A stretch of 64,000 nt of DNA from Dipylidium caninum (Eukaryota > Platyhelminthes > Cestoda > Cyclophyllidea > Dipylidiidae), in NCBI GenBank assembly GCA_017562135.1, contig QEYB01000290.1, positions 310,001 to 374,000 on the forward strand, written 5' to 3'. Shown here piece after piece: positions 212-22,740 of this stretch. The notes beneath the pieces are model-generated. The model searched no databases and had not been told where the DNA came from. It was given only the letters and a program-made list of their open reading frames with translations. Position 1 is the stretch's first letter; every line of letters begins with the position of its first letter. The position numbers and the translations under genes were made by a program.

Positions 212-2079
212 CTGGTCCTATACAGGGGCCTTGAGCTACCGGAACCAATTCTAATATCACAAACAATTGAGATGAGTTGTCAAAGTGGAGGGTAATTATA
301 ATTTGTTGGGGTATATTACTAGTGACAAGGTTAATTATAAAATTTACATGTAATAATACATTCATCGTTGAAAATCTACAAGAAAGTGGTACTCAAAATA
401 GTCTTACCTTATACTTCCGAGCGAATGGATTTACAGATCCTCACAAAGGACAGGTTTTTCTTTACTCACATATCTCAAAGGCAAGTGTCACTAGTAAAGG
501 GTGATTGGCAATCGGGAAACTGTTGGTGCAGCTCATATTTATAAGGAGCGGAGAACTCCAACCGAACCTACAGCTTTATTGCTGTGGTGCAGGATTACTG
601 CTGTTAGTTGCGGTTAACTTCAAGTTGCCGCAATGACGATGAATAGAGAGGAGGTTAACAGAAAGTTACGTGCAACTTGGTTGATGAGTCGCATTTCTTC
701 TGACGGTGCCTACTTATTTTTACACAAACACTCTGGATGATTGGTGGTACATCCTTCGAGCCATCCTCCACTCAAAGAACCCCAGGTCTCAGACACTATA
801 TTAAGGTGTTGTAACCTCAAGAAAGTCATTCAAGTCAGACTTGCAAATGTCATAATTATCTCTTCCCCGAAGTGTATCTGCATAAGTATAAACTAAAAAA
901 CTGGACCGAATTTTGAAATAAACCCTAAACATACGTTAATTTATCAACTTGGCACCACAAACCATGCGGTTTCTTCATATCCTTATTATAAGCGAAAGCC
1001 GCTGTCATCACCACGCTCTCTGAACTCTTTCACTCTACATCTAACTTATTCATTACGTAATGACACAAAAAACGATGACTGTTGAGCTTAGGAAACCACT
1101 CCTCCCGAGCTCCTACCTTTGCCCCGTCCTGATGAACCAGAGGTCCACGACACCACTTCCCATTGTGGCATTTAAAGGAAATACGTGAACTTAGGAATAT
1201 GGCACATCAAACAAGATGTCTATCCAAACTAAGGTAGGCAAAGTTGTGTCCTCGCTTGGTAGCAAAGGCAGATTCAAGCTATTTAAATAAGTAGTGGTCT
1301 CCGCCGGGAGAGGCAAATAACAAAATCAGGACATACCTGTTCTCACTGTATCAAACCGAGCTACGATTACAAATGTACATTAATCATTCACTTGTTCAGT
1401 GAGAAAGAGAGCCATTTTCATTGGGATTTAAGGAACACGAGAGCTCCCTCAGTTTCAGTGATTTATGAAAGGGAAACTGCGAGAAAATTAGAATTATTCC
1501 TCCTTGGAAGATTGGGAAGCGATGTAATTTTCGATGCCTCAACTTTATAATCTCATTTTAACTACCAACAGGAATGCCTTTACATCAAATAACCTGTCTG
1601 CAGGCAGCGCAGCTATGGGCGCTCGGAAGAGACGTCGCAGCGACTTGAGTCCAGTGATTCGCCTTTAAGGCATCGTTAAGGCCACTAACCGATAGAACAG
1701 AAAGTTGGTCTATTGCCCACCTACTAAATGGTCTCTTCCAATTCCCCATCTATTGTTACAGCCCTATTTGGGAATGTGGACCAGAACCCCTCAACGGATA
1801 ACGAGAACCCGATAACACAAAATAAATAGTCTTAACTGCCATCCGAGATAAATGGAGTTGTCTCAAGTAGAGTTCCATGCATCAATGTTTAATGATATTC
1901 ACCCTACCGTCCGGAACTCCAAACAAATAACTCAGCGTCTTGCTTAAAATCATTAGGCCCAATTTGTGTATACGATGGGTTTTATTAACGAAAAGAAGAT
2001 ACTTCTGAATTTTCACTAAAAGGTCATACTAGATGCGTACCTCGCTCCGATGAAGAAGAAGAGCCGCAGCTTGAAGATG
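212..2079 (-). CDS. Most distal micro-exons seen in the window
   Basis: 212-250 is a clear unit (E-LVPVAQGPCIGP, ATTAG acceptor, GTATG donor). 2041-2079 is also exactly 39 b and phase 1-1, with a CTAG acceptor and a GTACGC donor, but encodes a Ser-rich peptide (A-SSSCGSSSSSER) unlike the others. Weaker phase 1-1 candidates are 1117-1155 (39 b, V-VSWTSGSSGRGK, poor acceptor) and 1337-1360 (24 b, A-RFDTVRT). No stop codon or polyadenylation context marks an end here, so the gene probably continues past base 1. Confidence 0.6.
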
Positions 2080-5000
2080 CTAGAAGGAAAAAAGTGAGAT
2101 TAGAGTTTATCTTCTCAAGTCTCGTATGGTACATGTTGGCGAATATTTAAATAAATCCGACGTCCCAAGTGCTTCCTCAAACACTATTAACTCAACGCCA
2201 CACACGTCTGAAATGGCAAATTTACATATTGTTTACTACCTTATCCAATTATTTTTAGACTCTAGGCTCGACCCAACCAGCGACTCTGAATGTAAACTGA
2301 AGAAATTGCATATTTAAACTTTACTACAATGATATGGAAGTCCTTGTATTCCGATGAAGTATTAACTTAAAGATTACCTCTTTTACAACTAACTTTACTA
2401 GGCTTCACAAGCAGTTCTTCGCGACGATTTACATTATGGGGTAGTGATTTTTACTTTAAATATCTCAATAAGTGGAATAGATCCCATATTTGAAGGTTAT
2501 GAAATACGTGTGGTTATTGAGAGTGATGGAAATGGAAGTATTTTGAAATTCTCGGACTTCAACTAAGGCTATAGAACTTCAATTTTTATCAGCTTGTCAG
2601 AAGCGCCACAACTTCGAATTCGACAAAAAGAGAGGGGATAATTTAGAGATAAGTCACAGAAAAAATTTAGTCAAAGGAGAGTGCATGTATTACTTCATAG
2701 TAATAGAGGGCGAATTTGTGACCCTTCGGGATAACTATTGACGCTGAGCAGCGTTGGAAGCTCGCCGAAACTACAGGCCCTGGTATTCTCTATCGTTTAA
2801 CTTAAAAAATGGTTGCCATCATTCATTCTATTGATTACGGTCGCGAAGAAGATTTTGAGATTGGAAGAAAAGAGAATTTAATGTTATGCAATAGAGTAAT
2901 GGCCATTAATTCATTTTGATAATAAGGCTACTTGACCATCCGTCTTGTTCAATCCTTCAAATGAAACTTCAAACGCCATTATCTGTGATTATCGTAGCAG
3001 ATAAAGTTTTCCACTCCCACAAAAGGTCCATTTAATAATCTAAAAGTAGACTTACCTCTGACCCTATTCTCCACAACGCGGGTAACATAGGTCTGTGGTA
3101 CTTCCTGCCGTATTCGAGTAACTGTTAAGTTCAGGGAATGTCGATTAGCAGTGGATGAAAAAGCAAATGCGTCTGAATTGAATAAATCATACATAAATTA
3201 AAGAAAAAAAGGGATACCTGGAGCAACAACCGTGGTTGGCGCAACAGCACGCACCTCTAAAGTAACAAATTAAACCAGATGAGAATCCTAGAAATTAGTT
3301 AGGGAAATTAATAACGAGATAGTACGGTTCGATAGCGGTATGGATGTCAATGTGCACGAATATACCTCCAAAACAAATAATGCTACTTAGAAACATTAAG
3401 ATGGGTAAAATACCTTGAACAGCGGTTGGTAATGGAGCAACCGGAACTAGTTCTAAGGGGGCAAAGAGGATAAAGATCAGAAATTTAGTAAAAAAAGATG
3501 ATAAGATGGTGAAAAGAGAATGAAAGGGAGAAAAGCTAAAAACAGCAGAAAAAGTAACGCACGCAAACATTCCAGGAATTATTATCGGGTAGAAAAAGGG
3601 AACGAGAGTAATGGGGGGAAAAGGACTCATTTATCACAAGGGAAGCGAAATCTGCCAAAAATGCAAAATGGTAGAATCTAATCTATAATGAACTTAGTAA
3701 ATCAAGTCAATGCACTACCTTTGAAGAAAACAAAATAACCCTAGTCGGTTTCTCCCACACAATTGTGTAGGTCAAGCAGGAATTTAATGGCATGACAGCT
3801 TGAATGAGCAACAAAAAGGGAACGCGGTTACAGCACTAAGGAAAATACAGTAAACATTTCATCCCTTATAGCTGACTTCCACATATTAACAGAGTAAACA
3901 ATTGCGGTCGTACCTGGAGCAACCACGGTGGCTGGCGCAATCGTACGCACCTCTAAAGAAACAAATCAACAAATTTGAGTCTACGTGTAAAAGGGAACGC
4001 AGTTACAGCATTAGGCAAATAAAATAACCCTCTTATCCCTCCTAACTGATTTCTACTAAGTAACAGGGTAACTAATTCCGGCCGTACCTGGAGTAACCAC
4101 GGTGGCTGGTGCAACCGTGCGAACTTCTAAATAAATAAAACAACAAATGTGAGTGTTTGAGAAAAAGGGAACGTAGTTACAGCATTAGGCAAATAAAATA
4201 ACCCTCTTATCCCTCCTAACTGATTTCTACTAAGTAACAGGGTAACTAATTCCGGCCGTACCTGGAGTAACCACGGTGGCTGGCGCAACCGTACGAACCT
4301 CTAAAGAAACAAAGCAACACACTGTGTTACCTCCCATTTCACCTGTCATGGCAGGTGTACACTTCTCCCATCTTTCACAAGGCGAGCAAGGAAGAAGGTG
4401 AAAGGAAAATAAACGGAACCATGACTACCCTGTGATTGGACCCCTGCACACAAGGTACTCCAGTCCTCGTCCTCATACTCAATTAAACCAAATACGCGAG
4501 ACGGAAGTAGCCTTCATACTAGAATGCAACAAACTCTCCCATTTCCGAGGAGCTATGAAAGGCGGAACTCTACCTCGAACAACCACCGTCGCCGGCGCAA
4601 TCGCACGAATCTCTCATGTAACAAAGTAACACAAGTTGGCCTCTCCTATACCAGAAACTGGGTATTGCTAAGGAGATTTGTGTGTGTTTTGAAGAGGGAG
4701 ACAAATATATGTTGACATGACCGCAATCAAAGGAGACCCCTTTCAGTGAGTCTCTCGTCCCTTTGCTCACAGGATGAGACGGAGTCCACGCATCCACCTA
4801 CCTGAAACTGCGAATGGTGTTGGAGTAACTGGAACCAATTCTAAAGTCACAAAACAGATTCACCTCCACTCGAAGTCCACTTTAGTGGGAAAAAAATAAA
4901 TGGCGTCGATGGTGGCAATTAAGTGGAGATGATCATTTGAAATCACCCTCCCAATGCTAAAGGACACCTTCTCCCTTTGTCTTCTCTAATCTCTTACACA

Positions 5001-8000
5001 GGGGTGAGTATAACTGCGAACTTCTCAGAGTTTTCAGCATAAGCAAATAATGAATTATGGTAAATGAAATATGCTATATGTATTACCGAAATGCTATCTC
5101 AGTTAAATCAAATTTAAACACGACCAACGAGCTAGTAACCCCTTTAGGGTGATGGGTTTATCATCCTAACTGAAAGGAAATGTTTTTTCTCTAAACTATC
5201 AAGTATGCAAACGAAGAGAGCATGCGGACTGACAACTGTAGAGGGTGCTACCATATGCAATTCTAAAGTAATAAATCGACTTATTCTAAGATTTTTATCT
5301 CGTACTCATTAAGGATAATAACGAAGAGAATATTGGGGAAGGTGATGCAAGTAAGCCCAAGGGCTCGCAGTAGGAGGCACCACATGAAGTGAAATTTGAG
5401 CTTTCGGCATAGTACTTGGCTTACCTTGAAAAGCACAGGGTGCTGACGCTACTTGAACTAATTATGAAAACGTGAGAAAGCGAATTTTCAGTCATGAATG
5501 ATGGTAACGGGTAGAAGTTAGGGTAGTCGACTAACATGAAGTAAAGTTAACGCTAAAGGTTCAAATATTCCTGCAACTGAAATATAGCTGAATAAAGAGA
5601 GGGAGGGAACATAGACTGCAATACATCAATCTGGAAATGTTCTTTAGGGGTAGTATCAGTTGGACATGACAGTCAAGTGGCGAAGAAACACCATTCGACG
5701 TCTATCTTTAAGCACTCAGTAGGAGCGATAAGAGGTTTTTGGGTAGCGACAAGTAGGGAGATAAGTGGTTGCAAACTGTTCGAGGTCTTAAATAAAGCCA
5801 CTTTAAGTAGATGGATCTAATCTCCAACCCAATAAACACCTAAAGGAAGGAGGGCAGACATGTAGACATGTGGATACAATATAGAGAAAGTTAGTTGGTT
5901 TTACAGTATCAAGGGTATAATCGTACCTGGAGTAACAATAGTAGATGGTGCAACCGCACGAACCTCTAAAGCAAGAAGAAAACAGTAGTATCGCGTAAAA
6001 TCACTCATTACAAATGTGAAGAAAGTGCTGTACCATCGAAAAGGAGGTAGAAAGAAGTAAGCAGATATGCACTTCAAAATGAGACATTAAGCGAACTTTT
6101 CCATTATAAAGTAACAATTATTAATTAGAATTGGCGAGAAATCATTTGGGATTACGCAAAACATAAAGATGGCGATAAAATAAAGAAGAATTTATATAAA
6201 TGGGGAAGAAAAATTGATTTTACGTAACCAAAGTCAATATTAAAGGAAAGGGAAAGTTAAGCGCAAACACAATTAAACCGAAAAAAGTTGCAAATAAAGC
6301 AAGAATGTAAAAGTACCTGGAGTAACAAATGTGGTAGGCGTAATTGTGCGAACTTCTAAAAAGCAGCGAACCAATACACATTGTTACAATTGAAATTGTT
6401 TAGTATGACCAGACAAATCGTTTCCTGTGACAACAGAAGGGACACACGAGCACACAAATACACTTCTACTTCACACTACACCACTTTGTTACCTTCATTC
6501 CTCTACTTTTCCTACCTTGAACGATGGGTGAGAGTGGATCATCGGCCACTAATTCTAAAGGAGCACAACAAAGAACTTCACACTTTCGGGAAGGCATGCA
6601 ACCGAGGAAACTTGTTAAGTCCAATAAGGTAAGGGAAAGGCATGCAATCACCGATGCTGTGTTAGGAAACCTGTTTCTCCCACCCACTACCACACATTAC
6701 ACTGGAAGGTTTGCAGTGGTAAGTGTAGACTTACATGGTCCTTCCTAAGATAGTGAAACATGACTTTACCTGGAGTGACAACAGCAGTTGGCGGTACCGG
6801 AAGTGCTTCTAAGGAACAAGTTAAAAATCACTAAGGCTGGTAATGAGGGCCCCGGATCATGGGGGCGGATAGAAGGTCACTGCATAGCAGCACTTCCCAC
6901 ATTAAACCAATGCCATTTGAACCAGGCCCCCCTCTCCTAATCGACAATGTTCGGTACTTAACCTTAGTGATTGGCCTACCTGGAGCAGCGCAAGGTGATG
7001 GAGTAACTGCGACTACTTCTAAAAAGGCAACGAATTTGTCCACATTTTGAAATACATATGAGATAGGACAATTGTGAGATCGAGTTACGCAAAGGCGAAA
7101 ACGTAGAGACGCTCGATAAGGTTTGTCGCAAGCCACTGGTCTCACACCAGAAAGGCAATTCAATTGTGCAAAGTGACCTTGACAGAATATACACATCGAT
7201 GACAGTAGCAAAGAAATGGAAAAGATTGGAGTGGCAGATTGTCGATATCAAATAAATATGCATTGAAGTGCGCATCCTCGTGAACTTGGTGGATATTATC
7301 GGAAGATAACGGGGCTCAGACAGGTGAAACTGTTTCTCCGATCACAAAAAAGGCTTGAACACAATCACCTACGTTTGAGGCAGAAAAGACAATGAAAAGT
7401 GAAGAATTTTGAGCATAAAGGGGGGAGGGAAGGGGGAAGCATAAAATAAAAGTGGGAGTTCTATAATCACCGACGCAAAATTGAACTTAAACCTCGTGGT
7501 TGTACAAATGACGACATAGTCTGATCAAAATAATCCATAACACAGATATACCTGGAGTGACAACCGCAGCTGGCCCCACCGAATGAACCTCTAAAACGAC
7601 AATACCGGGTGTCATCGAAAATGGCACTGCACTACATTGGGTAACAACCGTGGTTGGCGCGACTACACCCAACTCTCAAAAAGCAAAATATACTACCAAC
7701 TTGACGAGCGTTATTGCGCAGAAAGTAGTATCCCCCCACCTCTCAATCTGTCTTCTAACCTCTAGTCCTTTCAACACGCTTACGATTTTACCCCGATTCA
7801 ATTAAATAATGAATTCAATAACTTGACCACCTGATGCTACGAAAGGTGTCGCAGAAAGCGGAACTAATTCTAAAAACAACAAAAAAATTATTTACAAATT
7901 AGCAATAGGGCACGACGGATAAGAATTGCGGCCTGAAATAGAATGACGTTATGTGGATGAGACTAGATGATGCTATCATTTTAAAACTGTAACAATAAGT

Positions 8001-11000
8001 CTAGTGGCATAATTAGCTCCTTTAGCTCTGTTCGCCTGACGCTCAGGGATAGGATTGTGAAGAGTACGATTTTATGCTTGAGAAGTGATACGAATCCCCT
8101 CAAGTACAACGCGGATGAAGGTCGTACCTGGAGTAACCACGGCGGCGGGCGCAATCGTACGCACCTCTAAAGAAACAAATCAACAAATTTGAGTCTACGA
8201 GTAAAAGGGAACGCATTTACAGCATTAGGCAAATAAAATAACCCTCTTATCCCTCCTAACTGATTTCTACTAAGTAACAGGGTAACTAATTCCGGCCGTA
8301 CCTGGAGTAACCACGGTGGCTGGCGCAACCGTGCGAACTTCTAAATAAATAAATCAACAAATGTGAGTGTTTGAGAAAAAGGGAACGTAGTTACTACATT
8401 AGGCAACTAAAGATGTCCTCTTATCCTTTGTAGCTGAATTTTACACATTAGCAGGGCAGACAATTGGGCTCGTACCTGGAGTAACCACGGTGGCTGGCGT
8501 AACCGTACGCCCCTCTACATAAACAAATCAACAAATATGAATGTGCGAAAAAAATGAAACGTAGTTACAACATTACGCAACTAAATTTGTCCTTTTATTC
8601 ATTGTAGCTGACTTCTACAAGTTAAAAAAAATAACCAATTCCAGTTATACCTGGAGGAACCACGGTGGCTGGTGCAACCGAACACCCCTCTAAACAAACA
8701 AATTAACAATGAGTGAGCGACAAAAACAGGGATGCAGTTACAACATTAAACAAATAAAATAACCCTCTTATCCCTCGTAGCTGACTTCCACATATTAACA
8801 GAGTAAACAATTGCGGTCGTACCTGGAGCAACCACGGTGGCTGGCGCAATCGTACGCACCTCTAAAGAAACAAATCAACAAATTTGAGTCTACGTGTAAA
8901 AGGGAACGCAGTTACAGCATTAGGCAAATAAAATAACCCTCTTATCCCTCGTAGCTGACTTCCACATATTAACAGAGTAAACAATTGCGGTCGTACCTGG
9001 AGCAACCACGGTGGCTGGCGCAATCGTACGCACCTCTAAAGAAACAAATCAACAAATTTGAGTCTACGTGTAAAAGGGAACGCAGTTACAGCATTAGGCA
9101 AATAAAATAACCCTCTTATCCCTCCTAACTGATTTCTACTAAGTAACAGGGTAACTAATTCCGGCCGTACCTGGAGTAACCACGGTGGCTGGTGCAACCG
9201 TGCGAACTTCTAAATAAATAAAACAACAAATGTGAGTGTTTGAGAAAAAGGGAACGTAGTTACAGCATTAGGCAAATAAAATAACCCTCTTATCCCTCCT
9301 AACTGATTTCTACTAAGTAACAGGGTAACTAATTCCGGCCGTACCTGGAGTAACCACGGTGGCTGGCGCAACCGTACGAACCTCTAAAGAAACAAAGCAA
9401 CACACTGTGTTACCTCCCATTTCACCTGTCATGGCAGGTGTACACTTCTCCCATCTTTCACAAGGCGAGCAAGGAAGAAGGTGAAAGGAAAATAAACGGA
9501 ACCATGACTACCCTGTGATTGGACCCCTGCACACAAGGTACTCCAGTCCTCGTCCTCATACTCAATTAAACCAAATACGCGAGACGGAAGTAGCCTTCAT
9601 ACTAGAATGCAACAAACTCTCCCATTTCCGAGGAGCTATGAAAGGCGGAACTCTACCTCGAACAACCACCGTCGCCGGCGCAATCGCACGATCTCTCATG
9701 TAACAAAGTAACACAAGTTGGCCTCTCCTATACCAGAAACTGGGTATTGCTAAGGAGATTTGTGTGTGTTTTGAAGAGGGAGACAAATATATGTTGACAT
9801 GACCGCAATCAAAGGAGACCCCTTTCAGTGAGTCTCTCGTCCCTTTGCTCACAGGATGAGACGGAGTCCACGCATCCACCTACCTGAAACTGCGAATGGT
9901 GTTGGAGTAACTGGTACTAGCTCTAGAACGCAAACAGGATAACAGTTTCGTAAAACTCATAGCCGTTGTGAGTTATAACATTTGTAAATACGTGAATGAA
10001 AGTGGATTAGGCTTATTTTGAACACTGTAAGTAATTACATACATTCATTTGCGATTCAATTGAGATGTCCAATGCAATCGACATAGATTGAATATTCGCA
10101 TGGCGGGATAAGTAACGATAAGCTCTCTTACCTGGACGAACAAACGTGACGGGCGTAATCAATCGCGTTTCTAAGGCAAGAAAGTAACAGAACTTTGGAT
10201 TTTCCGAACTAATCATCATAAGAAGCACGTACTTAAGGTAAAAAATGAGTTGAGAACCACCGCTCTAGGCAAAATCCGTTTAAATAGGGTTATTAAGGCC
10301 TCAAACACTCATCGGACGGGATACGTGAATGAATGGAATGGGAAGGCCGTTCTTAGAGTAAGTAAAGGTCTGTTTCAGTACTTTTAGTAAACCAAAGCAT
10401 GATCATACCCGGAGGAACCGACCCTAGTTGGCGTAACAGCACGCACCCCTAAAACAACAAATCAAGGTAAGTTTATAAGGAGAAAAGAACTAGATGATAA
10501 GTCAACTAACAAAATCGTGAAAGTAAATACGCCTGAACCTTACACGCTGCCACTTTAATTAATGCATTCTAATAACTGGCCTACCTTGAACGGCAGCTGG
10601 GACAGGAGCAGCAGGAACTAAGTCTAAGGGTATAACATAGAAAATCACATACGTGGTAAAGCATAAGACAACAGCTACTTCGCAAATCGGATGAGATGAG
10701 GCAGTGTAAACCAGTGGTCCGCCAATAAAAGCATTGTTGGATCTTATCTTCTGGGATAGTACAAGGCAAGATCAGCGGTGAAAATAGGTTTATACATTTC
10801 CCCACTTCAATAACAACCGTTAAATGTAAAAGGAATGACATTACTCGGGCCAATAATATTAGCTGGTACTAATACATACAGGTCTACACTAACGCAGCAG
10901 AGGATAACGGTATATTACGGGAAATCGGACAGAATTTGCAGTTTTGTAACGTCGATGCTGGGAAGGTTCAATACTCATGACTTCCCTAGCCCCACCGCTT

Positions 11001-14000
11001 AATAAACGCGGATAAAACAGGTTGCAAAATAGCAAGGTGACATTTTGCTTCCATGTACATTAACCTGATTAAGTGAAAATCATGAGTTTATTTATTTGTC
11101 TACATGGAGTTTCGCACGGAATTCGAGAGACCTGAACTAAGAGCAAACACACAAATAATTACATTTTAAAAATGTCACGTGTAAAACGAGTAATGGAGGA
11201 AATCCACAAAAACTTAGCTAACTGAACTCAGTGGACCAAAGTAAGACACCGGGTCTCATCTTCTCAACTTTCAATACGGATATTAAGGCAATAAAGGTCG
11301 GGAAAGCAGATACCTTGATTTAGCAGTGTCATAATATTACTCACTTGTTAAATGCATTAATAAGTGGCAATATATGAATAAATGGCAAGTGGGACAACAT
11401 AAAGAATTGAAAACTACCGGCTAACACAATTCGCTAACTACTCAAAAATTTACATGAGGTGACGATAAGAGGAAAGCAGCAAAATGAGGATTGAATAAAC
11501 CAATGGAAAATTTTCGCCTTCGCACCACTCTTACACGCGGAGCTGCGAGGTAAGCCATAGAACAATCTACTTAAAACCGCATATGGTTGCCTGAATTCGT
11601 GGAGCTGCTATCATACTCAATGAAGGGCCTTTTCAGCTGGGATAGCAAAATTCGAAGGGAGAAAAAATGGTGCACAGCATTCCTCGAAAATAATGCTTGT
11701 AGACGCTACGACGCATCGCAAAAAAGACGGAGGTCTGCATTTCTGGGACCACTAAAGGAAAAGACGCGAGTGGGGGAGTGCGTAGGGAGGAAATCCATTA
11801 GTAAAGGAAAATGAAGAATAACAAAATATGACTAATTGTCGTGCGCACCTCTAAAGCAGCGAACCAATACACATTGTTACAATTGAAATTGTTTAGTATG
11901 ACCAGACAAATCGTTTCCTGTGACAACAGAAGGGACACACGAGCACACAAATACACTTCTACTTCACACTACACCACTTTGTTACCTTCATTCCTCTACT
12001 TTTCCTACCTTGAACGATGGGTGAGAGTGGATCATCGGCCACTAATTCTAAAGGAGCACAACAAAGAACTTCACACTTTCGGAAGGCATGCAACGAGGAA
12101 ACTTGTTAAGATCCCAATAAGGTAAGGGAAAGGCATGCAATCACCGATGCTGTGTTAGGAAACCTGTTTCTCCCACCCACTACCACACATTACACTGGAA
12201 GGTTTGCAGTGGTAAGTGTAGACTTACATGGTCCTTCCTAAGATAGTGAAACATGACTTTACCTGGAGTGACAACAGCAGTTGGCGGTACCGGAAGTGCT
12301 TCTAAGGAACAAGTTAAAAATCACTAAGGCTGGTAATGAGGGCCCCGGATCATGGGGGCGGATAGAAGGTCACTGCATAGCAGCACTTCCCACATTAAAC
12401 CAATGCCATTTGAACCAGGCCCCCCTCTCCTAATCGACAATGTTCGGTACTTAACCTTAGTGATTGGCCTACCTGGAGCAGCGCAAGGTGATGGAGTAAC
12501 TGCGACTACTTCTAAAAAGGCAACGAATTTGTCCACATTTTGAAATACATATGAGATAGGACAATTGTGAGATCGAGTTACGCAAAGGCGAAAACGTAGA
12601 GACGCTCGATAAGGTTTGTCGCAAGCCACTGGTCTCACACCAGAAAGGCAATTCAATTGTGCAAAGTGACCTTGACAGAATATACACATCGATGACAGTA
12701 GCAAAGAAATGGAAAAGATTGGAGTGGCAGATTGTCGATATCAAATAAATATGCATTGAAGTGCGCATCCTCGTGAACTTGGTGGATATTATCGGAAGAT
12801 AACGGGGCTCAGACAGGTGAAACTGTTTCTCCGATCACAAAAAAGGCTTGAACACAATCACCTACGTTTGAGGCAGAAAAGACAATGAAAAGTGAAGAAT
12901 TTTGAGCATAAAGGGGGGAGGGAAGGGGGAAGCATAAAATAAAAGTGGGAGTTCTATAATCACCGACGCAAAATTGAACTTAAACCTCGTGGTTGTACAA
13001 ATGACGACATAGTCTGATCAAAATAATCCATAACACAGATATACCTGGAGTGACAACCGCAGCTGGCCCACCGAATGAACCTCTAAAAACGACAATAACC
13101 GGGTGTCATCGAAAATGGCACTGCACTACATTGGGTAACAACCGTGGTTGGCGCGACTACACCCAACTCTCAAAAAGCACAAATATACTCCAACTTGACG
13201 AGCGTTATTGCGCAGAAAGTAGTATCCCCCACCTCTCAATCTGTCTTCTAACCTCTAGTCCTTTCAACACGCTTTACGATTTTACCCCGATTCAATTAAA
13301 TAATGAATTCAATAACTTGACCACCTGATGCTACGAAAGGTGTCGCAGAAAGCGGAACTAATTCTAAAAAACAACAAAAAAATTAATTTACAAATTAGCA
13401 ATAGGGCACGACGGATAAGAATTGCGGCCTGAAATAGAATGACGTTATGTGGATGAGACTAGATGATGCTATCATTTTAAAACTGTAACAATAAGTCTAG
13501 TGGCATAATTAGCTCCTTTAGCTCTGTTCGCCTGACGCTCAGGGATAGGATTGTGAAGAGTACGATTTTATGCTTGAGAAGTGATACGAATCCCCTCAAG
13601 TACAACGCGGATGAAGGTCGTACCTGGAGTAACCACGGCGGCGGGCGCAATCGTACGCACCTCTAAAGAAACAAATCAACAAATTTGAGTCTACGAGTAA
13701 AAGGGAACGCATTTACAGCATTAGGCAAATAAAATAACCCTCTTATCCCTCCTAACTGATTTCTACTAAGTAACAGGGTAACTAATTCCGGCCGTACCTG
13801 GAGTAACCACGGTGGCTGGTGCAACCGTGCGAACTTCTAAATAAATAAAACAACAAATGTGAGTGTTTGAGAAAAAGGGAACGTAGTTACAGCATTAGGC
13901 AAATAAAATAACCCTCTTATCCCTCGTAGCTGACTTCCACATATTAACAGAGTAAACAATTGCGGTCGTACCTGGAGCAACCACGGTGGCTGGCGCAATC

Positions 14001-17000
14001 GTACGCACCTCTAAAGAAACAAATCAACAAATTTGAGTCTACGTGTAAAAGGGAACGCAGTTACAGCATTAGGCAAATAAAATAACCCTCTTATCCCTCC
14101 TAACTGATTTCTACTAAGTAACAGGGTAACTAATTCCGGCCGTACCTGGAGTAAACCACGGTGGCTGGTGCAAACCGTGCCGAACTTCTAAATAAATAAA
14201 CAACAAATGTGAGTGTTTGAGAAAAAGGGAACGTAGTTACAGCATTAGGCAAATAAAATAACCCTCTTATCCTCCTAACTGATTTCTACTAAGTAAAGGG
14301 TAACTAATTCCGGCCGTACCTGGAGTAACCACGGTGGCTGGCGCAACCGTACGAACCTCTAAAGAAACAAAGCAACACACTGTGTTACCTCCCATTTCAC
14401 CTGTCATGGCAGGTGTACACTTCTCCCATCTTTCACAAGGCGAGCAAGGAAGAAGGTGAAAGGAAAATAAACGGAACCATGACTACCCTGTGATTGGACC
14501 CCTGCACACAAGGTACTCCAGTCCTCGTCCTCATACTCAATTAAACCAAATACGCGAGACGGAAGTAGCCTTCATACTAGAATGCAACAAACTCTCCCAT
14601 TTCCGAGGAGCTATGAAAGGCGGAACTCTACCTCGAACAACCACCGTCGCCGGCGCAATCGCACGAATCTCTCATGTAACAAAGTAACACAAGTTGGCCT
14701 CTCCTATACCAGAAACTGGGTATTGCTAAGGAGATTTGTGTGTGTTTTGAAGAGGGAGACAAATATATGTTGACATGACCGCAATCAAAGGAGACCCTTT
14801 CAGTGGAGTCTCTCGTCCCTTTGCTCACAGGATGAGACGGAGTCCACGCATGCACCTACCTGAAACTGCGAATGGTGTTGGAGTAACTGGAACCAATTCT
14901 AAAGTCACAAAACAGATTCACCTCCACTCGAAGTCCACTTTAGTGGGAAAAAAATAAATGGCGTCGATGGTGGCAATTAAGTGGAGATGATCATTTGAAA
15001 TCACCCTCCCAATGCTAAAGGACACCTTCTCCCTTTGTCTTCTCTAATCTCTTACACAGGGGTGAGTAGTGGAAAGGAATGTCTTAAACTTGTCAGAGGT
15101 TAGTGTCTTCTACCCAATGGGAAAACATGACAACTTGTTAACATACCTGGACTAACAAGTACGGTCGGTGCAATCGGAAACAGTTCAGTGACAAAAAAAT
15201 TGATGACCATGAAAATATTATTTGAGGGATTTGGATAACTGTTTTCATGATGAGAGCTAGAATGCAAATCAAATAAACTCAGATCTTCTTCTACGTTATA
15301 AAATATGTGGTCTGCGAAAAATCTTTCCTATTATCCGCCATAAACCCTATCCTCTCATAACAGTCGCCTTACCTGATATGGCAAATGGTGTTGGGGTTAT
15401 GTGGATCAAGTCTGTAAGGAGAATTGAATGTGTTAATATCTTAATGTAAAAGTCAGCTTGTTAATATCCTAATGTCTGATTTACCTATGATTTGTAAATT
15501 ACCACTCCTTGCCTAATCAGCGCATACATCTCAACTTTCTCGGCTAATACATTGTTTTAGGTGAGTGGTTATTATAACAATATATTACTGACTCGATATC
15601 CCTAAATGTTCTACCTCGCTCTACATGTAAAACTGTGTAAATGATCTTTGGAGCAATAATCTCATTTGCCACAACCGACATATTTCTAAAGCAAATTACA
15701 ATCACACTTTGCTAGTCTTTAAAGCATTGTTTCGTGATAATAATAATAAAGTAATTGATCATGACCTCGTGTTACATAATGATAACACTTTTAATCATTT
15801 TTTCACCGATGCAAGCTATGACCTACCTGGAACAGTACGGGGCGATGAGGCAATTGGAATTAATTCTACAAACACAATGAATTCGGCAATGCTTGGCTAC
15901 AGCTTGTCATGGACCCTATTTGTAGGCTCGACCCCCAAGTTGGAAAGTAAAGGGAACGTGGAAGCAACGGTCTGAGTTTTCTTATTATAAACCAATCACG
16001 TATTTTCATTTCCTATCCTATCAGCGAACGGACATTAAAGTGCATGAACCAGTTAATGTAGCGTTACACAACTACTAATCCGTAGTAGAATAACATTGGG
16101 TATATGCGCAATTTAGCTGAATAATCGACATTGTTGCGACTGCTCACTAACAGATTAATTCACAGAGCCTTAGATGATGATAACCGTAACGAAAGTAGCA
16201 TACTTCAACCCTATTATTTCTATAAATGGCATAAACGTGACAGAGGATATGAGTGGTAAGTGTTCTAATGTGCCCAAGACACCCTGGGGCTGTTTATACA
16301 AGCAGTCTACCTACTTGGACCAACAATTGTGGTTGGCGTCATGGCCCGTAGTTCTAAAATAAAGTAAGCACATCGGTAGAGGTTCTTTAATGTTTAATAA
16401 AAATTAAAACAAGAGTATATCAATTTTATGGGTGTTTAGGCCTTAGGGGAAGGGAATAGAAGACATTATAGAGATATTCGACAGGTCACAAAATGCTCTT
16501 AAGGGAAATTTCCATATTCAAAACCTGCCTGAAACACCAATCCTGGTCGGCACAGCTGTACGCACTTCTAAAAGGACGTATCACGACGTTTTAATCGAAG
16601 ATGAAGAAGCCAATGGACAACTTTTAAACATAGGGGAAATAATCAGAAATTTATAAACTAGGAATACCCGTACTCATCCCACCTGATTTATCAGCATCAA
16701 AGAGTTTACTTATTGGAGCGAAGAGTTAGAAACAAATAATCTTAGCTCTGATTTATACATATACATATATATATATATGTGTATGTATATATAGTTAAGC
16801 CGAAAAATAGATACTGCAACTACATGGGCAGGGCACATGGCTTTATTTCTGTGGTGGAAAAAGCATAAAAGTTGTGAAAATTAAACCAGTCTAATTCATC
16901 TTCAAGAAGATTAGGATAATTCCCGTTCTAAATACATGAATGCCAAATTAAATGAGGCTATTTATACTGACTTATCAAAAATGCAAGAGAGTACTCTGTC

Positions 17001-18357
17001 AGGAAAATACGAATGGCCAAAAGAGCACATTTTAGCGGACTATAAAGTGGATTTCCGCGGAAGGCAAAATATTTTGCAGTTTTCAGCTTTGAAAAATAAA
17101 TAGAACTTGGGCAAGGAAATATGCATAAACGGCAGATTTACGGACCTAAAATTACGGAGGTAAGCTTAAAGGAAAATAAATTTTATTGTTTCGAATATAG
17201 TTGAAAAGGCACGGAGGGAGCAAAATATGACAAATAAGACTATTTATTCCAGTGTTCTTCACCTATACTAAGAGGAAGGCAACTCTACAACCAGTTATCT
17301 GTAATAAACCTTATGATTTCATAATTCCATACCGTCTACCAGCATTATTTCTAGGCTGGTCAACCATACTAACGGTTTTGAAATACACACACCTGAAAAA
17401 ATTCAAAACCATTATAAATTCCGGAAAGTACACTAGTACGCAGATAAAAATTGGTTTAATTTAACATCGTATTTTAACCATACGACAACCTCATGAATAT
17501 ACCAATAACAAGTCAATGATATCATCTGAAAAGAAGGATTCATTGCAAAATTCTTACCATTAACGGGCCCGGCAGCGAATTCGTTGGAGATACCGCCTGT
17601 AATGGGAGTTGTGAGCAAAGTTATCAAGAACTTGACGATGGTAAATGTAAGTACCACTCTGCTAGTCACAGAGCAGAGACTCTAACAACCCTAATATTAA
17701 AAGAATTATTACGCTTTTTAACAAAACAGAATGGTGACCTAAAGCTGATGTCTTCCACCCTACACCACTTTCTATTCTGCACTGGTTCGTGGAAAGATGA
17801 GTGTAGAATGAAGTGCAAAGAAGCCAGTTTGTTTAAATCTCCGCCGCATATAATCAAATTACCCAAGTTTAAGCTTTCTGGGCACTCCACGATAGCAGCA
17901 TTAGGAGGATTAGTGGAGTGTTTGATTTGAGGTTCTATAAATGAGACCCAAACAAATAACCAGTAATAAGTGTATACGTTATCATTAATCAAAGAAAAGC
18001 GCCGGAAATTCATGTTCAGACATTGAACTAATCGTATTAAAATGTAACTTCAAGTTAATTCATCAACCTTTTGAATAATACTGCCTTAATATAAAGTGCA
18101 GGAAACGATTTTCTACGGAACGTACCGCCAACAACGACCTGAGGCATCTTCACGACTATGTTTTTCAGGTAAATGGGTGGTTTGTTCGGTGCGACAATTG
18201 CAGGAAGAGCGTTAACGGCACATGAGCGAAGCACCACGGGTCTCTCTAACGAAATAAGTCAGTGTGCGAAATGGACGCAAACATTCTTATTGTGATAAAG
18301 AATTTGCTACAAACTTACCAATGCCAGGTAATGGTACCACATTTTCGGTAATTGGAA
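212..18357 (-). CDS. Giant micro-exon gene (MEG-like) encoding 13-residue repeat units
   Basis: On the minus strand I can place 46 exons of exactly 39 bases plus exons of 33, 66, 72 and 120 bases. Nearly all are bounded by AG upstream and GT downstream (one has GC). Every exon starts with the last two bases of a codon and ends with the first base of the next, so all are phase 1-1 and interchangeable. The split codon is usually Glu (G|AG or G|AA). The units read E-VRTVAPATVVTP, E-VRTIAPATVVAP, E-LVPVTPTPFAVS and similar: Pro/Val/Ala-rich with a P near position 7. Known family comparison: micro-exon genes of schistosomes and tapeworms are built from symmetric exons and encode secreted variable proteins. 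I infer membership from architecture, not sequence. No first or last exon is proven, and the gene probably continues beyond base 1. An alternative is an unrelated repeat protein with exon-wise repeats. Confidence 0.8.
3056..5965 (-). CDS. Micro-exons of block X and neighbours
   Basis: 5927-5965 (VRAVAPSTIVTP) is intact. 5425-5457 is a 33-b exon: the usual acceptor is lost (CAT in place of TAG) but an AG six bases further restores a phase-1 exon reading V-QVASAPCAFQ. Block X repeats the module seen in Y and Z: 4802-4840 (LVPVTPTPFAVS), 4574-4612 (IRAIAPATVVVR), 4262-4300 and 4088-4126 (VRTVAPATVVTP), 3914-3952 (VRTIAPATVVAP). Then come 3414-3452 (LVPVAPLPTAVQ), 3218-3256 (VRAVAPTTVVAP) and a 66-b phase 1-1 exon at 3056-3121 (V-TRIRQEVPQTYVTRVV...) with an AACAG acceptor and a GTAAGT donor. 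Confidence 0.75.
3870..5010. repeat. Intragenic segmental duplication, third copy of the end module
   Basis: About 1.14 kb nearly identical to 13926-15069 and, up to the LVPVTPTPFAVS exon, to 8780-9911. It contains three 174-b units, the IRAIAPATVVVR exon and the LVPVTPTPFAVS exon. Confidence 0.85.
5224..5262 (-). pseudogene. Micro-exon unit with destroyed donor
   Basis: The unit keeps a TTTAG acceptor and reads LHMVAPSTVV, but its 3' border is CGC|ATGC with no GT. It can be spliced into but not out of, so it is probably dead. Confidence 0.55.
6317..9922 (-). CDS. Micro-exon block P+Y (first copy, longest exon array)
   Basis: Exons in transcript order: 9884-9922 (LVPVTPTPFAVS), 9657-9694 (38 b, one base short of its copies), 9345-9383, 9171-9209, 8997-9035, 8823-8861, 8651-8689 (GCSVAPATVVPP), 8476-8514 (GRTVTPATVVTP), 8302-8340, 8128-8166, 7831-7869 (LVPLSATPFVAS), 7636-7674 (LGVVAPTTVVTQ), 7552-7590 (VHSVGPAAVVTP), 6980-7018 (VVAVTPSPCAAP), 6770-6808 (ALPVPPTAVVTP), 6516-6554 (LVADDPLSPIVQ) and 6317-6355 (VRTITPTTFVTP). 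All but 9657-9694 are 39 b and phase 1-1. Eight units between 8128 and 9383 are VRT-type and sit at regular spacing. Exons 7831-7869 and 7636-7674 have the less usual donors GTGGTC and GTAGTG. Confidence 0.82.
6360..9911. repeat. Intragenic segmental duplication, copy 1 (pairs with about 11853-14890)
   Basis: Bases 6360-8340 match 11853-13836 almost exactly at an offset of about 5494. Bases 8780-9911 match 13926-14890. The copies differ mainly in the number of 174-b units between the fixed flanks (five here between the 8302 and 9345 exons, two in the other copy) and in scattered single-base indels. A third copy of the right-hand part is at 3870-5010. Confidence 0.88.
8128..9383. repeat. 174-base tandem array of whole micro-exon plus intron units
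   Basis: Eight micro-exons start at 8128, 8302, 8476, 8651, 8823, 8997, 9171 and 9345, that is at steps of 172-175 bases. The 39-b exon and the roughly 135-b intron are repeated together at high identity. The same period recurs at 13624-14358 (five exons) and 3914-4300 (three exons). Confidence 0.9.
10132..10883 (-). CDS. Unique micro-exons between the two duplicated blocks
   Basis: 10845-10883 (D-LYVLVPANIIGP, ends in A), 10585-10623 (D-LVPAAPVPAAVQ) and 10132-10170 (E-TRLITPVTFVRP) are intact 39-b phase 1-1 exons. 10409-10448 is the same kind of unit (VRAVTPTRVGSS) but 40 b long, so including it would shift the frame. A 30-b phase 1-1 candidate lies upstream at 11314-11343 (V-SNIMTLLNQ, acceptor AACAAG); it is only a possibility. 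Confidence 0.7.
11838..15069 (-). CDS. Micro-exon block Q+Z (second copy of the duplicated module)
   Basis: Exons from 5' to 3' on the minus strand: 14860-14898 (LVPVTPTPFAVS), 14632-14670 (IRAIAPATVVVR, acceptor ATGAG), 14320-14358 (VRTVAPATVVTP), 14146-14187 (42 b, disturbed), 13972-14010 (VRTIAPATVVAP), 13798-13836, 13624-13662 (VRTIAPAAVVTP), 13325-13363 (LVPLSATPFVAS), 13130-13168 (LGVVAPTTVVTQ), 13045-13082 (38 b, frame broken), 12473-12511 (VVAVTPSPCAAP), 12263-12301 (ALPVPPTAVVTP) and 12009-12047 (LVADDPLSPIVQ). The block ends at about 11838 inside a truncated unit that keeps only its acceptor half, which marks the duplication junction. Introns and exons are almost identical to 6360-9911. 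Confidence 0.8.
11838..15069. repeat. Intragenic segmental duplication, copy 2
   Basis: Second copy of the module described at 6360-9911. Its right part (13926-15069) agrees with 3870-5010 further to the right than with 8780-9911, because the 8780 copy diverges after 9911. The left junction is inside a micro-exon unit near 11838. Confidence 0.85.
15147..15185 (-). pseudogene. Micro-exon unit with lost splice acceptor
   Basis: A 39-b unit readable as LFPIAPTVLVSP with an intact GTATG donor, but the bases before it are TG instead of AG. The normal CTTTAG has become CACTG. A second dead unit at 15647-15685 keeps the TTTAG acceptor but has GA in place of the GT donor, and its reading is degraded. 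Confidence 0.65.
15373..16567 (-). CDS. Divergent single-copy 39-base micro-exons
   Basis: Four exons outside the duplicated blocks. 16529-16567 (E-VRTAVPTRIGVS) has a GC instead of GT donor. 16315-16353 (E-LRAMTPTTIVGP) ends in A, so the following codon becomes Lys rather than Glu. 15827-15865 (E-LIPIASSPRTVP). 15373-15411 (D-LIHITPTPFAIS) has a TTACAG acceptor. They keep length, phase and the central TP/SP pattern while the rest of the sequence has drifted. Surrounding introns are longer and share no obvious repeat, so these look like older members of the series. Lesions nearby are listed as pseudo-exons. Confidence 0.75.
16757..16793. repeat. AT-rich dinucleotide microsatellite
   Basis: Alternating TA/TG run with a near-palindromic centre (ATACATATACATATATATAT then ATGTGTATGTATATATA) in an intron-like part of the micro-exon gene. 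Confidence 0.8.
17558..18357 (-). CDS. 5' part of the micro-exon gene: non-repeat symmetric exons and possible start
   Basis: In transcript order: 18319-18357 (39 b, VPITENVVPLPGI), 18126-18245 (120 b, begins E-RPVVLRS), 17863-17934 (72 b, begins E-PQIKHST) and 17558-17596 (39 b, G-GISNEFAAGPVN). All four are phase 1-1 with TTAG/ATAG/ACAG acceptors and GTAAG, GTACG or GTAAT donors, so they join in frame. An ATG at 18011-18013 reads into the 72-b exon without a stop, giving a 151-b first-exon alternative (17863-18013). Its N-terminus has a hydrophobic YYWLFVWVSFI stretch that could act as a signal peptide. The two exons above 18013 would then belong to a longer isoform whose first exon I could not find. 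An 18-b phase 1-1 candidate (17333-17350, IMLVD) follows downstream but could be chance. Confidence 0.6.
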
Positions 18358-20876: not shown

Positions 20877-21616
20877 TCACACGGCAGTATATGTACCCTT
20901 CTCCACGTCATCACAAATTTTTCGCAACCGAGCGTTAAAAAATTCAAAATTGAAAGGTTGGTTAGGTGCATAGAAAGGATTTTTGAGAACATAATCAATG
21001 TACGCCTCATAGACCCGTTTTAGAGCATCACGAGCTGCGTTGGGGATGCGACTATCAGTAACGAGAAGGAATTTCGTGCCACTGAGAGACTCGTAGCAGT
21101 GGATCCGGGATTCCGGAGTCTCAATGGTCTGAATACCAGATGGCTGAGCAGTAGCGTTAACCTTGAGATTACCAAGCGCCTCGGAACTAGCCGAGGACGG
21201 GGTCAAAACACGAGCCATATGATGTATGGCTTGAAACATACTAGCCACTGTGATGCGATCGTTTGGTCGCAATGAGGGAGTGCCGAGGCGAATCGTAACC
21301 GGGAAGTTAGACGGATTACGAAATAACTTAAAAAACGTCCCCGTTCATCCAAGACAAAACTTACTTCCAATATGTCCCGACCATCTTCAAGAAAAATGCC
21401 ATTTGCGTTAACTCCATTGACAGCAAGAACGCAATAACCCAATTTTATCTCATCAGTAGCACCAAATACAACAGTGAGTCGACCGTCAACATTTTCAAAG
21501 ACCAGCGAAAGAGGAAAAGAAAGTGTTTTTTCAACTTCGACGGTAGGCAGTGTTCTATCATAGCACATTTGGAGAGAACCAGATTCACTAATTACGTAAA
21601 TAGAGTATACGCTCAT
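20877..21616 (-). CDS. TRAPPC4: Trafficking protein particle complex subunit 4 (TRAPPC4/synbindin)
   Basis: Core subunit of the TRAPP complexes, which act as nucleotide exchange factors for Rab1-type GTPases in ER-to-Golgi and Golgi traffic. Two exons: 21365-21616 (84 codons, ATG at 21614-21616) and 20877-21326 (149 codons plus TGA), separated by a 38-b GTAAGT...TTTAAG intron. The protein is 233 residues; vertebrate TRAPPC4 is about 219. Family hallmarks: the N-terminal longin-like start SVYSIYVISESGSL, the CVLAVNGVNANG stretch matching the family AINGMDVNG, the HCYESLSGTKFLLVTD core, and the C-terminal DYVLKNPFY that matches ALKNPFY. The gene diverges from FAAH on the right. Confidence 0.93.
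21327..21364 (-). other. 38-base intron of TRAPPC4
   Basis: Starts GTAAGT and ends TTTTTTAAG. Removing it joins DILE to LFRNPSNFPVTI in frame, restoring the family's EYLGNPANYPVSI-like segment. Confidence 0.9.
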
Positions 21617-22740
21617 TGCAAAGAAACGAACAGCCAGTAGCTACACTCGGCTGACCTTGGCAGAGTAAGGATGCTAGAAAGTGAACAGGAATGAGGTTAT
21701 CAAATTCATTTTATTCCCAAAGTTTAGGAATTGACATGTGATGACCTAACTAATAAAGCTAATAGGGGTCATTATTGAATGTTTCATTGGTTTATAAGGT
21801 TAAAATAAAAAAATTTCTTTGCAAAATTTCAAGGCTTATATAAAAACAGATCCTTGATAAAATTTTTCACGATTTCACTGCAACTGCTGCGTCGTTCATA
21901 GGTAAGAGAATAATCCTCTAAAAGTCCAGATATCATAACGATATATGCCAAATTGAAGGTCTCCCTTCCTATAAAAGGGTTCCCAAATGTTTTCTTACTC
22001 AGTGTGACCCAATGTAGCCCTTGATCCTCCCGTCTGTTCACAACTCTTACTCTGAACTATCTATTTACGCCGGTGTGTTCTGCAAGACTGCAAGTAGCCC
22101 TATTGATTTATTCACAGTTTTCGGCGTTGCAAGTCACTCTCAGACAATATGCATTTTCTGCCATAAGTCATCCCAATGTTTTTGTTTCCTTGAATGAATA
22201 ATTAAATTATATGATGTTAAATACCCCATATGTAGCCAAATGCATGTACACTTTTTTCCTGTCATTTCTGTTTAATGGATGCGCCAGCAGTTTTACGCCT
22301 TTGACCGATTTTATTAATTTAATTTACATATATGTCGGGTCCCGATCATTAGACAATCAAGGCCTTATACCTAAATCATCGTTTGGCTACCCTAATTATC
22401 CACTTAGTGGCCTTGGTCGTCTAAATAAAGCGTCCTATTTCTCTGTGCCCCAGGGCATGTTTTTCGACTTCGGGTCCGGTCGCGCCAAGGTAATTTTCTC
22501 AATATATTGCATATTAAGCTCGTAATTCGTCTTCTTGCGCGGAGAACGTGGTTTGAGTTTGATAGGTTATAATGTTCCTATTGCATCAGTAATAATATAT
22601 TTCTCTTCAGTTGCTTTTACCTGACCGAATATTTGAGATTTAATCTGGCCACACTTCGTTTATTTGTCTTAGCTCGTGGTGATATCTATCGGGACGCTCT
22701 CTCTATACTTAATTAAGGACGTCCTACTAAACCTTTACAG
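21617..22740. promoter_or_regulatory. Shared upstream region of TRAPPC4 and FAAH
   Basis: The two genes point away from each other, so this interval should contain both promoters and probably a first FAAH exon. A plus-strand frame at 22211-22495 starts with two Met codons, carries a hydrophobic segment (MYTFFLSFLFNGC) and ends at a possible donor AAG|GTAATT. It would fit an N-terminal membrane anchor, but its phase does not match the next exon, so I do not include it in the gene. Confidence 0.35.

What the first reader, a model, noticed from the sequence alone, without database searches (positions are those of the whole stretch)
212..18357. Micro-exon gene with about fifty phase-matched exons, 46 of them exactly 39 bases
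Seen: uniform length, uniform phase 1-1 and conserved AG/GT borders across 18 kb, with a Glu codon split at almost every junction. Inference: this is a splicing-based diversity generator in which any subset of exons stays in frame. Known MEGs have symmetric tiny exons, but such a long run of one fixed size coding one 13-residue unit would be notable.
Basis: partly seen in the sequence, partly recalled or inferred. Interest (0 to 1): 0.92.

Follow-up and report, generated by a model that had tools for sequence, protein, structure and literature searches.

The report
Tapeworm gene with forty-two equal-length micro-exons
One strand of what is likely a tapeworm genome carries about fifty related tiny exon-like units, 42 of them exactly 39 bases long with matching splice signals and the same reading phase, so a cell would likely be able to include or skip almost any of them without losing the reading frame and is predicted to make a surface or secreted protein of variable length, though no RNA has been tested.

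Summary
On the minus strand, window 212-16567 carries 50 recognisable copies of one exon-like unit. Of these, 42 are exactly 39 nt, AG/GT-bordered, open and phase 1-1; eight are altered. Exon-body models trained on one half of the array, with no splice sites in them, find 16 clearly different units in the other half (9 plus 7): 14 have AG and 13 have GT at the right place (6% expected). Conservation centres on exon and splice sites, and codon position 2 varies least. Two further 39-nt exon candidates (17558-17596, 18319-18357) do not belong to the repeat. The array grew by nested duplication: 174-bp exon-plus-intron units inside ~5-kb blocks. My searches, blind to distant copies, found no copy elsewhere in the 106-Mb genome, and no relative in Pfam, PDB or a 5.8-billion-protein set that does hold the neighbouring TRAPPC4 from several tapeworms. 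The best reading is a micro-exon-type (MEG-like, SmPoMuc-like) flatworm gene for a Val/Thr/Pro-rich repetitive protein, likely spliced in variable subsets. Frame neutrality is shown, except two units that would create a stop. Transcription, exon skipping, secretion and both gene ends are unproven. It is a new variant of a known kind.

The parts
16529..16567 (-). repeat unit, 39 nt, GC donor
16315..16353 (-). canonical 39-nt unit (ends in A)
15827..15865 (-). canonical 39-nt unit
15373..15411 (-). canonical 39-nt unit
15147..15185 (-). repeat unit, acceptor AG absent
14860..14898 (-). canonical 39-nt unit, class B
14632..14670 (-). canonical 39-nt unit
14320..14358 (-). canonical 39-nt unit, class A
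14146..14187 (-). altered unit, 42 nt, homopolymer insertions
13972..14010 (-). canonical 39-nt unit, class A
13798..13836 (-). canonical 39-nt unit, class A
13624..13662 (-). canonical 39-nt unit, class A
13325..13363 (-). canonical 39-nt unit, class B
13130..13168 (-). canonical 39-nt unit ending in T (stop at next joint)
13045..13082 (-). altered unit, 38 nt
12473..12511 (-). canonical 39-nt unit
12263..12301 (-). canonical 39-nt unit
12009..12047 (-). canonical 39-nt unit, class B
10845..10883 (-). canonical 39-nt unit, divergent (ends in A; not found by cmsearch)
10585..10623 (-). canonical 39-nt unit, class B
10409..10448 (-). altered unit, 40 nt
10132..10170 (-). canonical 39-nt unit
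9884..9922 (-). canonical 39-nt unit, class B
9657..9694 (-). altered unit, 38 nt
9345..9383 (-). canonical 39-nt unit, class A
9171..9209 (-). canonical 39-nt unit, class A
8997..9035 (-). canonical 39-nt unit, class A
8823..8861 (-). canonical 39-nt unit, class A
8651..8689 (-). canonical 39-nt unit, class A
8476..8514 (-). canonical 39-nt unit, class A
8302..8340 (-). canonical 39-nt unit, class A
8128..8166 (-). canonical 39-nt unit, class A
7831..7869 (-). canonical 39-nt unit, class B
7636..7674 (-). canonical 39-nt unit ending in T (stop at next joint)
7552..7590 (-). canonical 39-nt unit
6980..7018 (-). canonical 39-nt unit
6770..6808 (-). canonical 39-nt unit
6516..6554 (-). canonical 39-nt unit, class B
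6317..6355 (-). canonical 39-nt unit, class A
5927..5965 (-). canonical 39-nt unit, class A
5425..5463 (-). repeat unit, acceptor AG absent
5224..5262 (-). repeat unit, donor GT absent
4802..4840 (-). canonical 39-nt unit, class B
4574..4612 (-). canonical 39-nt unit
4262..4300 (-). canonical 39-nt unit, class A
4088..4126 (-). canonical 39-nt unit, class A
3914..3952 (-). canonical 39-nt unit, class A
3414..3452 (-). canonical 39-nt unit, class B
3218..3256 (-). canonical 39-nt unit, class A
212..250 (-). canonical 39-nt unit, last (3'-most) of the array, class B
3813..4319 (.). 174-bp exon-plus-intron tandem array, 2.9 copies
8123..9402 (.). 174-bp exon-plus-intron tandem array, 7.4 copies
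13619..14377 (.). 174-bp exon-plus-intron tandem array, 4.4 copies
6346..8880 (.). multi-exon block, 95% identical to 11841-14377
11841..14377 (.). multi-exon block, partner of 6346-8880
3813..5010 (.). multi-exon block, 98% identical to 13872-15068; 3814-4832 is 98.7% identical to 8898-9914
17558..17596 (-). candidate upstream exon, 39 nt, phase 1-1, not of the repeat family; tentative
18126..18245 (-). candidate upstream exon, 120 nt, phase 1-1; tentative
18319..18357 (-). candidate upstream exon, 39 nt, phase 1-1, not of the repeat family; tentative
19748..19795 (-). candidate upstream exon, 48 nt, phase 1-1; weak

Best explanation
The minus strand carries about fifty related exon-like units, 42 of them exactly 39 bases with AG/GT borders and all in phase 1-1, which likely form the middle of one flatworm micro-exon-type gene and would be spliced in variable subsets to give a predicted secreted or surface protein of variable length. 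Each unit encodes 13 residues rich in Val, Pro, Ala and Thr with Glu rebuilt across nearly every joint (shown by sequence). Because the unit borders are all phase 1, units can be added, lost, skipped or reordered without shifting the frame (shown, apart from two units whose last base would make a stop). The array grew by duplication of a 174-bp exon-plus-intron unit and of blocks of about 5 kb (shown), while exons and splice signals stayed recognisable in units whose introns no longer align to any other (shown; purifying selection is the inference). The product is likely an extended, possibly O-glycosylated Thr/Pro-rich stalk of variable length (inferred from composition and from schistosome MEGs). 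A Cys-rich C-terminal part and short upstream exons are tentative.
For: Held-out exon-body models: trained above 10 kb they find 28 of 28 units below it, trained below 10 kb they find 17 of 22 above it. Since many of these are recent copies of training units, the fair set is the hits at least 6 mismatches from every training exon: 9 hits with AG at 8 and GT at 8, and 7 hits with AG at 6 and GT at 5 (background 6%). Information content is high only within -20..+41 of the exon start, apart from single columns at -53 and +52. Codon position 2 lowest in entropy, 0.78 against 1.27 and 1.34 (p 0.002). Codon usage of 23 units is better in frame (0.16 bits per codon) than in the other frames (-0.12, -0.15). 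Among 12 array units with homologous introns, intron divergence exceeds exon divergence in 46 of 66 pairs (4 equal, 16 reverse), in 37 of 39 pairs with intron divergence above 0.1 and in 5 of 6 disjoint pairs. In the two most recent block comparisons, which share one copy, 0 of 237 and 0 of 250 exon-plus-splice-site positions differ against 11 of 780 and 13 of 943 intron positions. Length peak at 39 nt and Markov control. Neighbour TRAPPC4 matches cestodes best. Schistosome MEGs are spliced by exon skipping, mostly secreted, often Thr/Ser/Pro-rich and O-glycosylated (passages of PMC5825161, PMC4671649, PMC4015677).
Against: No transcript evidence at all. No convincing signal-peptide or start exon; flanking exon candidates are not above background in splice statistics, and codon usage favours the proposed frame in only 4 of 13 of them. 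No relative in the protein set, so no conservation outside this genome. In the two older block comparisons exons are not clearly less diverged than introns (17/561 against 77/1956, and 15/334 against 34/927). pN/pS is only 0.70 in the true frame (0.79 and 1.29 in the others). Two units would create stops; 39 nt lies just above the 6-36 bp range given for schistosome MEGs.
Confidence: 0.55

Rival explanations
1. A constitutively spliced repeat protein: all intact units would be joined in one long transcript, and length varies only through DNA recombination between repeats. Functionally it would resemble repetitive structural or mucin-like proteins (silk, elastin or titin PEVK type), where symmetric small exons are a by-product of growth by exon duplication.
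For: Nested tandem duplications with 95-98.7% identity show active DNA-level expansion; all modules are class 1-1, as growth by exon duplication alone requires; no shared intronic element within 60 nt beyond the splice sites was seen that would hint at regulated choice, only two single conserved columns.
Against: Two intact-looking units (7636-7674, 13130-13168) would terminate translation if always included with the 39-nt borders, and four further units have lost a splice site or use a GC donor, so if the gene is used as assembled at least some units must be skipped or spliced otherwise.
Confidence: 0.3
2. The array is real but its copy number and the altered units are partly assembly artefacts of near-identical repeats.
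For: Between blocks 98% identical (3813-5010 and 13872-15068) there are 9 one-base indels against 13 substitutions, 8 of the 9 in homopolymers, an indel share that looks more like consensus error than evolution (my judgement).
Against: Ten units (16353, 15865, 15411, 10883, 10623, 10170, 5965, 3452, 3256 and 250, by first base) have introns that align to nothing else in the locus beyond 14 bases from the exon; they cannot arise by mis-assembly of near-identical repeats and show the same AG/GT, 39-nt, phase 1 pattern.
Confidence: 0.08
3. A decaying relic: a once-coding array now drifting, with splice sites preserved only by recent duplication.
For: 8 of 50 units are altered; two more carry a would-be stop; no relative found; no exon deficit in the older block comparisons.
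Against: Ten units with unalignable introns keep AG, GT and frame; distant held-out units keep their splice sites; codon-position pattern; the most recent block copies show no exon change against 1.4% intron change.
Confidence: 0.07

Closest known systems
Schistosoma mansoni polymorphic mucins (SmPoMuc; Roger et al. 2008, PMC2576457: outline, passages, and the section on tandem repeats read in full)
   Same: A tiny exon with its flanking introns is repeated in tandem in the gene and encodes the protein repeat; two repeat classes; repeats spread by recombination; transcripts vary in repeat number.
   Different: There a 27-bp exon in ~1-kb units separated by GA microsatellites, up to ~20 copies per gene, a multi-gene family with 15 exons and a hammerhead ribozyme; here a 39-nt exon, 174-bp and ~5-kb units, 42 canonical copies, one known locus, two classes interleaved, no Rfam match at gathering score in 74 kb.
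Flatworm micro-exon genes (MEGs): schistosome MEG families, 52 reported in Hymenolepis microstoma, 35 in Echinococcus multilocularis (PMC7653826, passages read)
   Same: Runs of very short exons divisible by three that make exon skipping frame-neutral; many products Thr/Ser/Pro-rich; reported as restricted to platyhelminths (PMC4350168, passage).
   Different: MEG exons vary in size (6-36 bp, or 3-81 bp by another account) with 10-20 short exons per gene (PMC10526429); here one exon family of one size repeated more than 40 times, with no detected signal peptide.
S. [quoted passage not shown] 1988; paper not held, title and citing passages only)
   Same: Repeated exons coding a repeat protein, alternative transcripts.
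   Different: 81-base coding repeat; exon layout not read.
Titin PEVK region and tropoelastin (recalled, no call)
   Same: Long runs of symmetric class 1-1 exons coding Pro/Val-rich extended segments, alternatively spliced.
   Different: Larger exons and other motifs as I recall; no Pfam domain at the curated cut-off in the candidate exons here.

Membership tests
[quoted passage not shown]
   42 canonical 39-nt units in series; on predicted exons only, no transcripts
Flatworm micro-exon gene (schistosome description) | symmetric exons of 6-36 bp (PMC5825161, PMC3961193) | tested here: not met
   units are 39 nt; within the wider 3-81 bp range of PMC10526429 they would fit. I therefore call it MEG-like, not a member of a numbered MEG family
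Flatworm micro-exon gene | signal peptide in a 5' long exon; long flanking 5' and 3' exons | tested here: inconclusive
   13 ATG frames with a hydrophobic stretch between 18.3 and 24 kb; the one with a phase-1 donor after that stretch (20881-20992) overlaps the TRAPPC4 coding exon; candidate flanking exons are short and not above background
Flatworm micro-exon gene | alternative splicing by exon skipping; secreted or membrane-anchored product | not testable with these tools
   no RNA or protein data in reach
SmPoMuc | tandem repetition of a small exon plus flanking introns coding the protein repeat | tested here: met
   174-bp units, ~5-kb blocks
SmPoMuc | 27-bp exon in ~1-kb units, 15-exon multi-gene family, intronic hammerhead ribozyme | tested here: not met
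   39-nt exon; no second locus found; no Rfam match at gathering score in window plus L009
Dscam-type mutually exclusive exon cluster | shared selector/docking sequence near each variant exon | tested here: inconclusive
   only two single conserved columns (-53, +52) beyond the splice sites, tested to 60 nt on each side only
Titin/PEVK or tropoelastin relative | neighbouring Ig/FN3 or other family domains, sequence similarity | tested here: inconclusive
   no Pfam match at the cut-off in candidate exons; no match in the protein set; other flanking sequence was not scanned with Pfam

The most novel reading that the evidence does not exclude
A single tapeworm gene works as a combinatorial length-and-sequence generator: more than 40 frame-neutral 39-base cassettes of two interleaved classes are drawn in arbitrary subsets into each mRNA, so that one locus yields an open-ended family of surface stalks, with stop-bearing units acting as programmed terminators and DNA duplication continuously supplying new cassettes.
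Probability: 0.22. Interest if true: 0.87.

Novelty: new variant of a known kind. Interest (0 to 1): 0.6.

Why it matters
The role of micro-exon gene proteins is still unknown (PMC10526429, passage), and their exons differ so much in size and sequence that splicing choices are hard to read. Here one exon family of one size, in graded states of divergence, sits in a single locus. That makes it directly testable whether parasitic flatworms build protein diversity by drawing subsets of micro-exons or merely by growing repeat proteins through DNA duplication. It also points to genes that standard gene finding is prone to miss: no relative turned up in a protein collection that does hold proteins of several tapeworms.

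Tried and rejected
Titin/PEVK or elastin membership: considered because of the phase 1-1 Pro/Val-rich modules; no domain or sequence support, kept only as an analogy. Dscam-type mutual exclusion: no shared element within 60 nt beyond the splice sites except two single columns. SmPoMuc-type ribozyme or complementary introns: no Rfam match; only two weak 17-nt inverted pairs (76%) in one array. Homologues: two protein searches with spliced models found nothing (one search scored only the 7997 candidates sharing most words, one search scored 3357). The neighbour TRAPPC4 served as positive control: 24 proteins, the first seven from cestodes, so the silence is not due to missing tapeworm data as such, though an unannotated relative cannot be seen. 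Other copies in the genome: single-unit DNA queries found only 8 and 3 of the 50 known units, so diverged copies elsewhere could be missed. N-terminus: 13 hydrophobic ATG frames, none convincing. The Cys-rich C-terminal model in the left flank (L009) reads through nine short exons to a stop, but splice-site statistics there (2 candidates against 0.4 expected, 16 of 200 resamples reach it, 2 on the plus strand) and codon usage do not prove it; two of its last exon borders were chosen because they gave the longer open frame. pN/pS over all units was too saturated to be decisive. The exon-against-intron count (84 of 105 pairs) included three units whose following intron is not homologous; one search replaces it. 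The binomial values treated recent duplicates as independent and are not used.

Full report
WHERE. The window is C755:310001-374000 of an unnamed 106-Mb, 920-contig genome. Its TRAPPC4 gene (minus strand, 20.9-21.6 kb) matches cestode proteins best: Taenia solium 83%, Hydatigera taeniaeformis 81%, Taenia asiatica 81%, Hymenolepis microstoma 74% and Echinococcus granulosus 74% identity. So the genome is likely a tapeworm's; the species was not identified.

THE OBSERVATION. A weight matrix seeded on obvious units finds 49 places at score 19.5 or more on the minus strand of the window plus 40 kb of left flank. The next best score 10.4 and 3.7; the plus strand reaches 3.3. cmsearch with a sequence-only model of 25 units finds 49 places, all on the window's minus strand. 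The two lists share 48 and together give 50 units between 212 and 16567. Of the 50, 42 are exactly 39 nt, bordered by AG and GT and open in phase 1-1. Eight are altered: a GC donor, two lost acceptors, one lost donor and four with other lengths. One search prints 43 canonical units because it reads the 42-nt unit at 14146-14187 from a second AG.

IS IT MORE THAN CHANCE. I trained a matrix on the 39 exon bases alone (17 distinct canonical exons above 10 kb) and scanned below 10 kb: 28 of the 28 units there rise above all noise, 26 with AG immediately before and 27 with GT immediately after, where 6% is expected. The reverse test found 17 of 22, with 16 AG and 15 GT. Because blocks are duplicated across that border, I then kept only hits at least 6 mismatches from every training exon: 9 hits (AG at 8, GT at 8) and 7 hits (AG at 6, GT at 5). 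The misses are the altered units with lost or shifted borders. Open AG|A...G|GT spans of 39 nt number 41 on the minus strand, 1 on the plus strand and 1.84 on average in 100 Markov resamples. In 31 distinct units the information content is high only within -20..+41, apart from single columns at -53 and +52. Codon position 2 is the most conserved (0.78 bits of entropy against 1.27 and 1.34; Mann-Whitney p 0.002). Codon usage of 23 units fits the phase-1 frame better than the others (0.16 against -0.12 and -0.15 bits per codon). pN/pS is only weakly informative: 0.70 in frame, 0.79 and 1.29 in the other frames. I take these as exons; transcription was not testable.

HOW IT GREW. Three arrays of a 174-bp exon-plus-intron unit sit inside blocks repeated at 95.0-98.7% identity with offsets of 5.0, 5.1, 5.5 and 10.1 kb. 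Ten units have introns that align to nothing else in the locus. Among 12 array units with homologous introns, introns diverge more than exons in 46 of 66 pairs, 4 equal and 16 the other way; above 10% intron divergence it is 37 of 39, and in disjoint pairs 5 of 6. The two most recent block comparisons, which share one copy, show 0 of 237 and 0 of 250 exon-plus-splice positions changed against 11 of 780 and 13 of 943 intron positions. The two older comparisons show no clear exon deficit (17/561 against 77/1956; 15/334 against 34/927). One-base homopolymer indels are frequent between near-identical blocks (for example 8 of 9 one-base gaps), so some altered units may be assembly errors.

THE PRODUCT. 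The 42 units encode 24 distinct 13-residue peptides, together 22% Val, 17% Pro, 15% Ala and 15% Thr, with no Lys or Trp inside the units. Two interleaved classes exist: one reads like E-[VI]-R-x-[VI]-[AT]-P-x-T-V-V-x-P, the other like E-L-V-P-V-x-P-x-P-F-A-V-S (31 and 15 of the 46 units in register). Because the last base is G in 38 of 42 and the first is A in all, joints mostly rebuild Glu or Asp; two units ending in A give Lys or Asn, and two ending in T give a stop. Upstream candidates (39, 120, 39 and perhaps 48 nt) and a Cys-rich downstream series in the left flank (nine short exons ending in a stop) extend the open frame. Neither is above background in splice statistics, and codon usage favours the proposed frame in only 4 of 13 of these exons. 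Of 13 hydrophobic ATG frames upstream none is a convincing start exon. I treat both ends as tentative.

RELATIVES. DNA searches with an array piece, one A unit and one B unit, and protein searches with both candidate ends, match only this locus; the single-unit queries found only 8 and 3 of the 50 units here, so their reach is short. Pfam and PDB give nothing at cut-off (one sub-threshold hit to DUF3474, E 0.18). The protein set gives nothing at E up to 0.1 (7997 candidates scored) or at E up to 10 (3357 candidates).

MECHANISM. What is shown: a long series of frame-neutral, equal-size modules with intact splice borders, grown by duplication. What is inferred: that these are exons of one gene, that the gene is expressed, and that subsets are chosen. 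The stop-making units and the altered units mean that, if the gene is used as assembled, at least some units must be skipped or spliced at other sites. That leans toward variable inclusion but does not prove regulated choice.

LITERATURE. I read passages, not whole papers, except one section of PMC2576457 read in full. MEGs: PMC7653826 gives the operational definition and the cestode counts; PMC5825161 gives symmetric exons of 6-36 bp and mostly secreted products; PMC4671649 describes Thr/Ser/Pro-rich, O-glycosylated, disordered products; PMC10526429 gives 10-20 short exons of 3-81 bp and calls the role unknown; PMC4015677 mentions SmVAL6 with 38 exons and exon-skipping isoforms; PMC4350168 mentions one exon duplication in MEG-3. 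SmPoMuc (PMC2576457): up to about 20 genomic copies of a 27-bp exon, and transcripts with up to 100 repeats. DeMarco 2010, Tsai 2013 and Davis 1988 were not held. In ten searches I saw no report of a uniform 39-nt array of this size; most subscription papers are outside that library.

VERDICT. The reading as a frame-neutral micro-exon generator is plausible but unproven. It is a new variant of a known flatworm gene architecture.

Noticed in passing
L009 and L010 (window coordinates about -3.8k to -9k and -24k to -17k): A SETD2-like gene (SET, WW and SRI-like stretches, named from recall) on the plus strand has a near-identical inverted partial copy on the minus strand close to the 3' end of the array.
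   Followed up: no
window 49726-50701, 53513-54347 and 60290-61147: Closely similar copies, one inverted, of a segment with long open frames and poly-Pro/GGCGGA tracts; possibly a dispersed repeat.
   Followed up: no
window 20877-21640 (minus) and about 22.4-26.2 kb (plus): TRAPPC4 (confirmed by search) and an amidase-like gene (named from recall) lie directly upstream of the array.
   Followed up: partly
window 251-3217: A gap of nearly 3 kb (2967 bases) without any recognisable unit separates the last unit from the rest of the array; whether it holds exons of another kind is unknown.
   Followed up: no
window 11104-11142: A weak matrix hit (score 10.4) that may be a remnant of one more unit.
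   Followed up: no
window 6346 and 11841: The ~2.5-kb block duplicated between 6346-8880 and 11841-14377 begins inside the 39-nt unit at 6317-6355, so one duplication breakpoint falls within an exon.
   Followed up: no
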